Below, piece after piece: positions 40,305 to 51,251 of a stretch of DNA of 64,000 bases (its first letter is position 1; the number at the start of each line of letters is the position of its first letter). The stretch spans positions 62,001-126,000 of the forward strand of contig NC_067396.1 of NCBI RefSeq assembly GCF_000165395.2, read 5' to 3'. This DNA is from Babesia bovis T2Bo. Its lineage: Eukaryota; Apicomplexa; Aconoidasida; Piroplasmida; Babesiidae. The notes beneath the pieces were generated by a model. That model did no database searches, was not told the origin of the DNA, and saw only the letters and a program-made list of their open reading frames with translations. The position numbers and the translations under genes are program-made.

Positions 40305-42258
40305 CAATTTTAGCCCGTGGCGATCTATGACCAAAACAGCGACGCAGCATATGATACCGTATATAACCAACAGTGGGTACATGAATACTATAGGCAGCAG
40401 TAGGGGTTGTGCCCATAAGTTTATAGTCCCGGTAATAAAGTTGGCCAGTAGGAAGAATACGAATGAATGCCTTCCAATGCAATCTAAAACTGTAGAGTCA
40501 ATCCTGTTACCTGTACCCGATAGCCAACGTTAGGCTTAGACTCTTACCGAATATTATTTCCGCCAATAGTACGGTGAAAAGACCCCAAGTGAATACGCAT
40601 CCAGTGTTTAGAACGAACCTGGCATTACCCTGAAATAACATATATATCACCGCCAGAAACTGACCAGAGTCCTAGAACTAGGCAGTCCGATAAGGTACAG
40701 CATATACGATCCCAACCCACAGCACAACCATGTTCTGTACATCAATGTTTGTATCGAAATTCGCCATACACGCTTAGGCGCAGTAAAGTATATGCTTGTC
40801 CTCGTTTTTCGTATATAAATTTGCAAGACTGGGTCACACTGTAGCCAAACAAAAACAAAGTCACACTGTTTGGAATGGCTACAATACCCTCCTTGTTAGC
40901 ACTGAATATTCCAACACGTTTGATCATTGGTAGAACGGTAGCCAAATTAAAGTACCATAAGGCAATCTCGTAAAACGTTCCAATCATCACTGGTACTAAT
41001 GCAACAAAATTAGGGGGCACAATGGAAAGAATGATCTCCGATGCTGCACATTTGTGAATAAACTGCGACGTAATAAGCTCACATATCTTTGCCACAGCTA
41101 GGGCAAGAAAGAAATTCCAATGAACACCATATTCTTCCACTGGGACATTGTAATTCACTGCCCTAGTAGAAACAAGCCTTAGGATACCAAGTAGAATAAG
41201 AGGGAAATTACGCCGTAGGATTTTAGTTATATCACGAGGAATATTGTCTACCGAATATTTGAGTGACCTATTATAGAGCTTACTTTTACTTAAGGCACGC
41301 ATAGATCCTGAATGGACTATCATGAATCCACATCCAATATCCATCTGCAAGCCGTTATTATCTAGTTAAATGTTAACTTACAGCAGAGAATCCATTAAAA
41401 AATGTTTTTGAACAGTGGCGATTAAAGTGCAGGTTGTCATATGCCAGTATTGCTGAAGTGATTTAAGTATGCAACCCAACCAAGATACCTATTATAGTAG
41501 CCAACATAAATAGCCCCCTAAATCTAACGACCAACGATCCGAAACTGGAACATAGCTGTATTTCCCATATACTACATACCAAACAAAATCTGATGGTGTC
41601 TGTTTTCGTCTGGTTATTAGGATCAATGTGGACCTGATGTACGTACAATACAAACGTGATGCAGCACTCACAGGTGCACTATGGAGACTATTAAAGCGTT
41701 GAAACCATCTTGGATAAGAACAAAAACTGTATTGTATATTAAAAGAATGCACATGCTGTATATGCATTGCATTGCTGAGGAATCCGATGCACGGTAGCAA
41801 CTAATAATGCCGGTTAGCTATAGCACTATGTCATAAACATAAGATACACTCACACTCAATACCAGAGTAAACAACAAAGCGGTACGAGTAGACTCCCATC
41901 CTCCATCTATGCCGTGCAGAGAATCCTGCAACGAACGATACAGAGTATTAGTGGTTCTCAGAACGCAGCCATGGGCATTCATATACCACAGAGACAACAA
42001 TGTATGTTTAATGATGCCAGCATATTTATTGTAAAACGATAATAAACTAGTGTAATCTAAGACCTTAGGAGTTGTATTCACGTTCAATGAATACACCTCC
42101 ATAAGAGTGGCGTAGAATCCCTGATCCTTTTGAGCTAATGCATGGTTGTAAACATCTACAATGGCATTGTGGGAGCTAGTTGGCACCGAAGGTAGAATCG
42201 TCGGCCTCAGTAGGTTAACGGGGCAGACATTGACCCCGTAACGCTCTAGAGGCGACAT
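40299..42258 (-). CDS. GWT1: GPI-anchor inositol acyltransferase GWT1/PIG-W (9 exons)
   Basis: Nine exons (41854-42258, 41672-41800, 41580-41633, 41489-41555, 41382-41452, 40772-41344, 40708-40734, 40548-40629, 40299-40510) join in phase to 539 aa with many membrane spans. Diagnostic blocks are FRGLFMLATIIAILAYDN, MDIGCGFMIVHSG (family AMDxGVGxFVxSxG), LLGILRLVSTRAVNY followed by VEEYGVHWNFFLALA, and FVFFLLANFITGTINL. GWT1 acylates the inositol of GlcN-PI in the ER, a step in making GPI anchors for surface proteins. Intron 3 (24 nt) lacks a stop and could be retained, giving 547 aa. The N-terminal about 49 codons lie inside a duplicated block. The start at 42258 is the first ATG of that frame. 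The N-terminal 130 residues match the family only weakly. Confidence 0.82.
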
Positions 42259-42596
42259 TGGCAGGCTCAGGTTAAAGTGAACGTGAAAGGCATACACAGA
42301 TAAGGTTTTAGCGTAGAGATACAGGCAGCTCTGCCTCTGTGGTACACATACATAGAGTAATGTGAGTACATTGCAAGTGTTAAAAAACTACTGGGCGCCG
42401 CATTTAGGCCAATGTGTAGCCTCGGCCTCCCCATGTGTTCCGTTTGTTGCACGTGGCGCTTGTGGCACGATGTATGAGGTAGGATCCTTTGTTTATATAT
42501 TATTTGTACATTTGAGGGTTTCCTTCTGTGTTTTTGAGAGAATCTAGGCTGATTTGTGTAGTATCGAGTCTCCGTGTTTGTGCCATAGGTATTACC

Positions 42597-43334
42597 ATGG
42601 CTGAAGACAGCGACACGCTTGACTGCTGGGACGCTTACACTGACTCTGAGGATGATCAGCGTATGTTTGATGATGTTGATGTTGGTTGAAGTGTGTTACA
42701 GCTCCGTCTAATGTTGATGTGAGTTCTCTGTCTGCTAAACTCCAGGCTCAAAAGTATGTTGAGTGTTGTTGTTGTGAGTATTTCGCAGGCTGAGCGAGTC
42801 TGCTGATCGCGATTTTGTAGATGATTTGTTTGGCGTACCAAGCAGGTCTGGTGGTAACGCCATTGACCACGGTAACGACGTGTTTTCGCAGAATCCAATA
42901 ACTGCCGTCAGTAAGTTTTGTTTTATTTTTGATTATAGGTTGCAGTTCCTACGGACCCCCTTTCACATGTGAGTCTGAAATGCCTAAAGGACTGTGACGA
43001 AGTAGCTAAGAAACTATCGCAGAAGATAGAGCAGAGCTCAGTGGGTTTTCCGTTTGGTGTTTGTGATGGTTATTAGGCTAAGAGTGCGATTTGGCTGCAG
43101 TTTCTGGATACCTTGTTCCAATCGTGCGAGAAGAAATTGGAGCTTAGGGATCTGCAGACTTTGAAGAGGAAGGTTGAGTCTGCCATCAAGTCCAAGGAAG
43201 CTAAGCAGAGCCAGGCCACCTTTTCTAAGAAGAAGCCTAATGACGTGACTAGTGCTAAGAACTACCAGGACGAGTTAGATATGCTATACGGTGATTTGAG
43301 TGACGACGACGATGAACCGTTGTACTATCAATAA
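42597..43334 (+). CDS. Translation initiation factor eIF3 subunit j, copy 1
   Basis: Five exons (42597-42660, 42702-42753, 42789-42910, 42946-43040, 43077-43334) give 196 aa. The N-terminus has the acidic Trp-containing start of eIF3j (DTLDCWDAYTDSEDD). A central NPITAVIPTDPLSHVSLK stretch follows, and the C-terminus carries the family's LELRDLQTLKRKVESAIKSK, then a Lys-rich run, then YGDLSDDDDEPLYYQ. eIF3j (yeast Hcr1) binds the 40S decoding centre, helps load eIF3 and acts in ribosome recycling. All four introns are 35-41 nt. The second copy at 47865-48602 is identical. Intron 3 needs the GCAG acceptor at 42943-42945; an earlier TAG would give a premature stop. Confidence 0.85.
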
Positions 43335-43423
43335 TTGAACCAGTGTCTAATTTTTGATTTCACTGTGGAATGCCTGGAGGAGGCGTTGTTGAACAATTGC
43401 TTCTACCTCTGTTGCTGGTTTTT

Positions 43424-50254: not shown

Positions 50255-50529
50255 CTTATACGATAAGATTATTATAACGTTTTATTCTACGGAAAAATAG
50301 ACTCCAGGGTCAACGGATCAATGTATATGATTCAAAATGTGATTATATCACAGTGAAAATCGAGTAGTAAATATTTTATTGAGGCTTAGAAATTTATAGA
50401 CGCATCAAGATATCGATGATGGCACTACGTAATACCGAAAGCACTGCTAACGTGTCCCCGATCATACTAGATCCGAGATCTCCACATATAGAAAAAAGAT
50501 AACTACGTTTATTAACCAATAATATGTGA

Positions 50530-50940
50530 TTATGCTCTCTCACCCCTGATCCTCCTGGCAAGCTGTATGTCCTTGGGCATGATGGTAACACGCTTAGCGT
50601 GGATGGCACAAAGGTTGGTGTCCTCAAAGAGGCCAACCAAGTACGCCTCAGCAGCCTCCTGCAGAGCCAAAACAGCTTGCGATTGGAAACGCAGCTCCGT
50701 CTTAAAGTCCTCAGCAATCTCACGTACCAGACGCTGGAAAGGCAACTTGCGAATTAACAACTCAGTCGATTTCTGGAATTTACGAATCTCACGCAGAGCC
50801 ACGGTACCAGGGCGATAACGGTGTGGTTTCTTCACTCCAGCCGCCACAGGCGCTGATTTACGTGCAGCCTTAGTAGCCAGTTGTTTACGAGGGGCCTTGC
50901 CACCAGTTGACTTGCGCGCAGTCTGCTTGGTGCGGGCCAT
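50530..50940 (-). CDS. Histone H3, copy 2
   Basis: Same 136-aa canonical H3 as copy 1. Only the last codon differs (GCA here, GCT there). The 3' flank is unrelated, while about 310 bp of upstream sequence is nearly identical, so promoter control should be shared and mRNA 3' ends differ. Confidence 0.97.
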
Positions 50941-51251
50941 CTGTACAAACCGTCAACAAATCGCAGTCAAACACATGAAATTATACTGCACAAAATAGCA
51001 AACAACACATTCATACACCAGTGGAATACAGTAGACCACAATTTGCTTTCATAGGCTAATACAGATGATCTATCCATGGCGAATGCAGACGTCACCAAAC
51101 ATACCTCGACAACAACCAAACGAACCAAAGCACCTGCTAGTATTGAATGTGATAACGATCGTTACAATTAACAGTACAAATTAAGTAATGAACTGTCGCT
51201 AACAACGAGAATTACGATGCAACTTGTGTGGCAACACAAAACAATGTGTGA
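50534..51251. repeat. Duplicated block B, copy 2 (H3 block)
   Basis: Second copy of the H3 segment at 44983-45700, same orientation, two substitutions seen. To its right the sequence leads directly to the 3' end of the BFR1-like gene. Confidence 0.95.

What the first reader, a model, noticed from the sequence alone, without database searches (positions are those of the whole stretch)
42111..51251. Segmental duplication with near-identical flanks and a strongly diverged middle gene
Two direct units repeat the order eIF3j, helical-gene tail, four-span membrane protein, H3. Block A (1,426 bp) and block B (718 bp) are almost identical, introns and promoters included. The membrane proteins between them share only about a third of their residues and their spacers do not align. 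If all parts duplicated together they should have diverged together. Either gene conversion keeps the flanks alike while the middle genes evolve fast, or the middle was replaced. This could be a small diversification locus framed by housekeeping genes.
Basis: partly seen in the sequence, partly recalled or inferred. Interest (0 to 1): 0.78.

Follow-up and report, generated by a model that had tools for sequence, protein, structure and literature searches.

The report
Gene conversion around diverged membrane-gene pair
In the cattle parasite Babesia bovis an old duplication left two now very different membrane-protein genes whose neighbours, a translation-factor gene and a histone gene, have recently been made almost identical again, most likely by one copy overwriting the other.

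Summary
In this Babesia bovis genome two direct units read eIF3j, four-span membrane protein (mem), H3. Block A differs at 7 of 1,426 bp, block B at 5 of 729; the membrane proteins share 34% of residues. Synonymous differences: eIF3j 0 of 125 sites, H3 1 of 102, mem 150 of 228. A dispersed third H3 differs at 59 of 102, so coding constraint does not explain the identity. All 7 block-A differences lie in its last 142 bp, and weak homology continues past that edge. B. ovis mem groups with mem1, not mem2 (97/96; mem1+mem2 p-AU 0.017). eIF3j and mem appear linked in three relatives. Best reading: an old local duplication that truncated one gwt1 copy, then recent non-allelic gene conversion of the flanks but not of the diverged middle. 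No sign of a diversification locus: two mem genes found, and 5 of 279 residues differ from another B. bovis record. It is a clean new example of a known process.

The parts
42111..43536 (.). Block A, unit 1: gwt1 5' end (-), shared upstream region, whole eIF3j (+), about 200 bp downstream
   Evidence: 99.51% to 47379-48804; 7 of 1,426 differ, at 43395-43529
47379..48804 (.). Block A, unit 2
42597..43334 (+). eIF3j gene, unit 1, five exons 42597-42660, 42702-42753, 42789-42910, 42946-43040, 43077-43334
   Evidence: spliced model 196 aa, PF08597 E 3e-12; 1 difference to B. bovis record P0008
47865..48602 (+). eIF3j gene, unit 2; exons and introns identical to unit 1
43675..44688 (-). mem1: four-span membrane protein, 337 codons before the stop
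   Evidence: ORF; four hydrophobic regions once overlapping ones are merged; homologues in B. ovis, Babesia sp. Xinjiang, B. caballi
49169..50254 (-). mem2: four-span membrane protein, 361 codons before the stop, 34% identical to mem1
   Evidence: first 219 residues identical to XP_001608837.1
44972..45700 (.). Block B, unit 1: H3 coding region and 311 bp upstream
   Evidence: 99.31% to 50523-51251; differences at 44975, 44977, 44982, 45469, 45470
50523..51251 (.). Block B, unit 2
44979..45389 (-). histone H3, unit 1, 136 aa, one exon
   Evidence: PF00125 E 7.8e-47; protein identical to unit 2, 1 synonymous difference
50530..50940 (-). histone H3, unit 2
40742..42258 (-). gwt1-like gene beside unit 1; its 5' coding exon starts in block A (the joining of exons is inferred)
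   Evidence: PF06423 E 1.8e-33 on 40742-41365; frames; the 5' exon alone had no Pfam match
47379..47526 (-). truncated gwt1 5' fragment in unit 2 (148 nt identical to 42111-42258, then unrelated sequence)
45701..47378 (.). Sequence between the units, not repeated; ORFs 46367-46669 and 46602-46871 (-), probably one spliced gene
51343..52905 (-). long, charged, coiled-coil-like reading frame right of unit 2, outside the repeat (name by eye)
   Evidence: no Pfam match above its cut-off

Best explanation
An old local duplication copied a segment running from inside gwt1 through eIF3j and mem to the upstream region of H3, and placed the copy about 1.7 kb to the right. Unit 1 keeps the longer gwt1 and is taken as the original; unit 2 has only a gwt1 stub. 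The two mem genes diverged past the point where recombination can pair them. The eIF3j and H3 flanks, kept similar by selection on their coding parts, went on exchanging sequence by non-allelic gene conversion, at least once recently. The homogenised stretches are long (1,284 bp identical in block A, by one tract or several) and stop where homology runs out: at the gwt1 breakpoint, near the H3 stop codon and in the eIF3j-mem spacer. Shown here: block identities, synonymous distances, clustering of differences, placement of mem1 with B. ovis, linkage in relatives. Inferred: the conversion itself, its direction, and whether it happened once or many times.
For: (1) Synonymous differences 0 of 125 sites (eIF3j) and 1 of 102 (H3) against 150 of 228 (mem; fourfold sites 33 of 45). 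(2) Control: the dispersed H3 on C2 differs from the unit-1 H3 at 59 of 102 synonymous sites, so H3 codons are free to drift. (3) Introns, upstream region and the gwt1 stub are identical as well (0 of 1,224 bp from 42111 to 43334). (4) 7 of 7 block-A differences lie in the last 142 of 1,426 bp (1e-7 if uniform, 4e-6 counting only bases outside eIF3j exons; computed after the pattern was seen), and homology continues weakly past that edge (anchored score 29 against 10.0 +/- 6.0, 1 of 400 shuffles as high; local score 41, reached by 3 and 8 of 300 shuffles at two lengths). (5) B. ovis mem groups with mem1 (97/96); mem1+mem2 as a clade is rejected, p-AU 0.017; the B. ovis eIF3j protein is 76% identical to that of B. 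bovis while the two B. bovis copies are identical in DNA. (7) Both copies here share a serine at residue 150 of eIF3j where another B. bovis record has alanine, as expected if a new change spread to both copies.
Against: One genome only could be read; no DNA of B. ovis, Xinjiang or B. caballi was at hand, so a second mem or second flank copies there were neither seen nor excluded. The mem tree has five rows and two long branches (mem2 1.9, caballi 1.96); p-AU 0.017 is moderate, and joining mem2 with Xinjiang or with caballi is not rejected (p-AU 0.09 each), so the place of mem2 and the root are open. Homology past the edge was found at 1 of 4 edges. Two adjacent differences lie inside block B. 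Reads were not available. Point 7 is weak: of the four other species printed, two have alanine and two asparagine at that residue, and it is not known which copy the other B. bovis record comes from.
Confidence: 0.72

Rival explanations
1. Recent duplication of a larger unit that held two old tandem mem genes, followed by loss of a different mem gene from each copy. The flanks are then simply young.
For: Explains identical flanks and an old middle without conversion; the mem pair is old. The unrepeated sequence between the units (45701-47378) shows that the rearrangement was not a plain head-to-tail duplication.
Against: A young duplication should differ evenly, but 7 of 7 block-A differences sit at the inner edge. 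One deletion would have to end within about 10 bp of the H3 stop codon and the other close to the block-A edge. Weak homology past the block-A edge fits old homologous spacers. In Babesia sp. Xinjiang one mem is seen next to H3; whether a second follows it was not visible.
Confidence: 0.15
2. The middle of unit 2 was replaced: a recent whole-unit duplication received mem2 by recombination from another locus.
For: Sharp edges of identity.
Against: No other mem copy was found in the genome to act as donor; mem2 has the same order and orientation as mem1 and a similar distance to H3 (290 and 275 bp).
Confidence: 0.05
3. Assembly artefact: reads of two similar copies were merged, or the unit is single.
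For: Most differences lie near unique sequence, where reads can be told apart; no reads or long-read assembly could be examined.
Against: The copies carry 12 differences between them and different sequence beyond every block edge; the identical stretch also begins directly at the unique left edge (42111), where reads would be anchored as well; block B is short enough for ordinary reads to span (general knowledge); two distinct mem genes lie between the blocks.
Confidence: 0.06

Closest known systems
[quoted passage not shown] bovis and B. bigemina; PMC5106780, passages read)
   Same: Two housekeeping gene copies with identical coding sequence lie close together.
   Different: Inverted and adjacent there; here direct, with a diverged gene between the identical flanks. 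The term 'gene conversion' does not occur in that paper's main text.
Segmental gene conversion of ves genes in B. bovis (PMC7485966, passages incl. part of the abstract read)
   Same: Same organism; sequence moves between non-allelic copies.
   Different: ves tracts average about 109 bp in wild type and create variety; here the identical stretch is 1,284 bp (one tract or several) and variety between housekeeping genes is removed.
Concerted evolution of gene duplicates, e.g. Trypanosoma brucei arrays and mammalian gene pairs (PMC1855330, PMC2720389; search listing and abstract starts only)
   Same: Paralogues more alike within a species than their age suggests.
   Different: Here the duplicated unit is a mosaic, with homogenised ends and an unhomogenised middle gene.
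B. bovis mtm multigene family (PMC7561165, passages read)
   Same: Multi-span membrane proteins of B. bovis.
   Different: mtm proteins have ten spans and 44 copies; mem has four spans and two copies found.
Claudin / TARP superfamily, and apicomplexan CLAMP (PMC8085155, passages read)
   Same: The mem1 model has four helices and a beta sheet in the first outer loop, and claudins and TARPs are among its best matches.
   Different: Model confidence is low (mean pLDDT 61); the mem2 model (55) gave no such match; no sequence match to a claudin family was found.

Membership tests
Concerted evolution by interlocus gene conversion | Paralogues in one genome more alike than their duplication age allows | tested here: met
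   eIF3j pS 0 and H3 pS 0.01 between units while mem pS is 0.66; mem1 closer to B. ovis mem than to mem2. Rests on the flanks and mem having been duplicated together, which is inferred.
Concerted evolution by interlocus gene conversion | Non-coding parts homogenised as well as coding parts | tested here: met
   0 differences in 693 bp outside the eIF3j exons (148 of them gwt1 coding) within the identical 1,284 bp
Concerted evolution by interlocus gene conversion | Tract-like edges | tested here: met
   7 of 7 block-A differences in the last 142 bp; a graded edge at 1 of 4 ends only
Concerted evolution by interlocus gene conversion | Within-species DNA copies cluster to the exclusion of relatives' copies | not testable with these tools
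   no flank DNA of relatives was available; protein level only
ves-type segmental gene conversion | Short tracts (about 100 bp) that create variants | tested here: not met
   identical stretch 1,284 bp between housekeeping genes; published mean 109 bp (PMC7485966)
B. bovis mtm family | Ten membrane spans | tested here: not met
   four hydrophobic regions in mem1 and mem2; ten in mtm (PMC7561165)
Claudin-like fold | Four helices with a beta sheet in the first outer loop | tested here: inconclusive
   mem1 model matches claudins and TARPs at pLDDT 61; mem2 model has a similar order of elements but no match
CLAMP | Conserved across Apicomplexa (abstract start in a search listing) | tested here: inconclusive
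   mem relatives were found in four Babesia species only, with a word-based search of limited reach; no CLAMP sequence was compared

The most novel reading that the evidence does not exclude
A mosaic duplicated unit in which long-tract conversion is kept running on both sides of a diverging gene: the eIF3j and H3 flanks are repeatedly homogenised because dosage or identity of histone H3 is selected, while mem2, a claudin-like membrane protein, has escaped conversion and taken on a separate role. This would be a natural test bed for how diverged a sequence must be to stop conversion in a compact parasite genome.
Probability: 0.25. Interest if true: 0.55.

Novelty: new member of a known kind. 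Interest (0 to 1): 0.42.

Why it matters
If right, it shows non-allelic conversion acting on core genes in B. bovis, where the papers seen here describe it for variant antigens, and over stretches more than ten times the published ves average (which may be the sum of several tracts). It also warns that identical eIF3j and H3 copies in this genome say little about how old the duplication is. The mem pair belongs to a membrane-protein family seen here only in Babesia, with an apparently conserved place beside H3 and eIF3j.

Tried and rejected
Homology between the inter-unit sequence (45701-47378) and the neighbouring genes, as remains of a simple tandem duplication: none convincing. Decayed homology at the other three block edges: not above shuffles (164, 280 and 78 of 400 as high; likewise). 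A family name for mem: Pfam gave DUF1218 below its cut-off (E 0.042; 2 of 7 alignment members); NCBIfam gave one transporter model far below its cut-off for mem2 (E 0.0048, 15.7 against 836 bits) and nothing for the three others; PDB sequences gave two archaerhodopsin rows at E 1.1 and 1.2. mem2 fold search: no meaningful match (model pLDDT 55). GC-biased conversion as a signature: third-position GC is about 0.55 in both flank genes against 0.45 and 0.35 in mem1 and mem2, but the dispersed H3 has 0.50, so it says little. Papers: eight searches on Babesia gene conversion, H3 and initiation-factor genes, B. ovis, long-read assemblies, ef-1alpha, membrane families, concerted evolution and H3 copies showed no title or abstract start that describes this locus; the lists were capped (for example 20 of 57 papers and 20 of 419), so this is no proof that it is unpublished. 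A ninth search was on CLAMP. The B. bovis genome paper was not held.

Full report
What is there. The window lies at C1:62001-126000 of an 8.23-Mb genome in eight contigs. It is Babesia bovis: the first 219 residues of mem2 are identical to XP_001608837.1 of B. bovis T2Bo. Self-BLAST finds two long gap-free direct matches: 42111-43536 with 47379-48804 (1,426 bp, 99.51%) and 44972-45700 with 50523-51251 (729 bp, 99.31%). In the first 250 kb of C1 a self-comparison found 24 matching pairs of 200 bp or more (E 1e-10); 2 of 24 reach 98% identity, and both are this locus. The rest of C1 and the other contigs were not compared in this way.

Anatomy. Each unit reads, left to right: 5' end of a gwt1-like gene (-), eIF3j (+, five exons), mem (-), H3 (-) with 311 bp of upstream sequence. 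The gwt1-like gene is named by PF06423 (E 1.8e-33) on its downstream exon; its 5' exon alone had no Pfam match and the join is inferred. It runs on beside unit 1 and is cut after 148 nt in unit 2. That suggests that unit 1 is the original and 42111/47379 a duplication breakpoint. Between the units lie 1,678 bp of unrepeated sequence, so the duplication was not a plain head-to-tail one.

Where the copies differ. Block A: 0 of 148 (gwt1 stub), 0 of 338 (upstream region), 0 of 738 (eIF3j with introns), 7 of 202 (downstream of eIF3j). Block B: 2 of 7 (just past the H3 stop), 1 of 411 (H3, synonymous, in the last codon), 2 of 311 (upstream, adjacent bases). In block A all 7 differences lie in the last 142 bp; if spread evenly the chance is 1e-7, or 4e-6 counting only bases outside eIF3j exons (computed after the pattern was seen). 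Past that edge an anchored alignment scores 29 against 10.0 +/- 6.0 for shuffles (1 of 400 as high); the other three edges do not stand out (164, 280 and 78 of 400). A local alignment gives the same picture (3 and 8 of 300 at the block-A inner edge for two lengths; 70 to 168 of 300 in the four tests at the other edges). At this edge identity falls from 100% through 95% to weak homology, as at the end of a conversion tract in an old duplicate.

Ages. Synonymous differences: eIF3j 0 of 125 sites, H3 1 of 102, mem 150 of 228 (pS 0.66; fourfold sites 33 of 45; dN 0.69; 325 aligned codons). The genome search with the H3 protein found four places: these two, one on C2 (95% protein identity) and a distant one on C3. 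The C2 gene differs from the unit-1 H3 at 59 of 102 synonymous sites, so coding constraint does not explain the DNA identity of the pair.

Relatives. Searches with mem profiles found 4 proteins (E up to 0.001) among 6,652 candidates and 5 (E up to 1) among 6,165: two B. bovis records, B. ovis, Babesia sp. Xinjiang and B. caballi. The eIF3j search found 15 proteins. The Xinjiang record is annotated as histone H3.3 but continues into mem, which places H3 just upstream of mem there. Identities: mem1-ovis 47%, mem1-Xinjiang 42%, ovis-Xinjiang 43%, mem1-caballi 30%, Xinjiang-caballi 40%, mem2-ovis 33%, mem2-Xinjiang 37%, mem2-caballi 29%, mem1-mem2 34% (31 to 34% by alignment). The five-row tree joins mem1 with B. 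ovis (97/96) and leaves mem2 outside. Forcing mem1 with mem2 is rejected at p-AU 0.017 and mem2 with B. ovis at 0.016; mem2 with Xinjiang or with caballi is not rejected (0.09 each). B. ovis is the species closest to B. bovis among those compared in PMC10471129 (abstract, phylogeny section and section on gained and lost genes read). The duplication thus most likely predates that split, while the B. bovis flanks are identical.

Interpretation. An old duplication with later gene conversion of the flanks explains this with the fewest steps. The middle escaped because it is now too different to pair; that step is inferred. Direction and number of conversion events are not known. Rivals are a young duplication with reciprocal loss from an older mem pair, replacement of the middle, and an assembly product; the reasons for and against each are in their sections. 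The main gap in the evidence is the lack of DNA from B. ovis and from other B. bovis strains.

Not a diversification locus. Two mem genes were found in the genome. mem1 and another B. bovis record differ at 5 of 279 residues, eIF3j at 1 of 196. mem evolves faster than eIF3j (47% against 76% identity to B. ovis), but nothing here shows hypervariability.

Verdict. It is a new example of concerted evolution, in a parasite where the papers seen here describe conversion for variant antigens, with an unusual mosaic layout. Interest is moderate.

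Noticed in passing
P0006 (Babesia sp. Xinjiang record): A public 'histone H3.3' protein of 475 aa looks like an annotation fusion of H3 and the downstream mem gene.
   Followed up: partly
49169-50254 and P0004: The public model of mem2 (XP_001608837.1, 242 aa) equals the open frame for 219 residues and then departs from it within the second membrane span; the frame stays open for 361 codons.
   Followed up: partly
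P0017 (B. bovis record): An eIF3j record of 122 aa follows the spliced protein for 111 residues and then reads into intron 4, as if that intron were kept in some transcripts.
   Followed up: partly
46367-46871: A probable two-exon gene between the units has no Pfam match and no other copy found in the genome.
   Followed up: partly
C1:1-40000 of G000: 22 of 24 repeated pairs in the first 250 kb start in the first 40 kb of C1, perhaps a subtelomeric gene family.
   Followed up: no
G000 C3:2348151-2348420: A distant H3-like match (44%) in a long open frame, possibly the centromeric H3 (the name is a guess).
   Followed up: no
11288-11324: An AT dinucleotide run of about 36 bp.
   Followed up: yes
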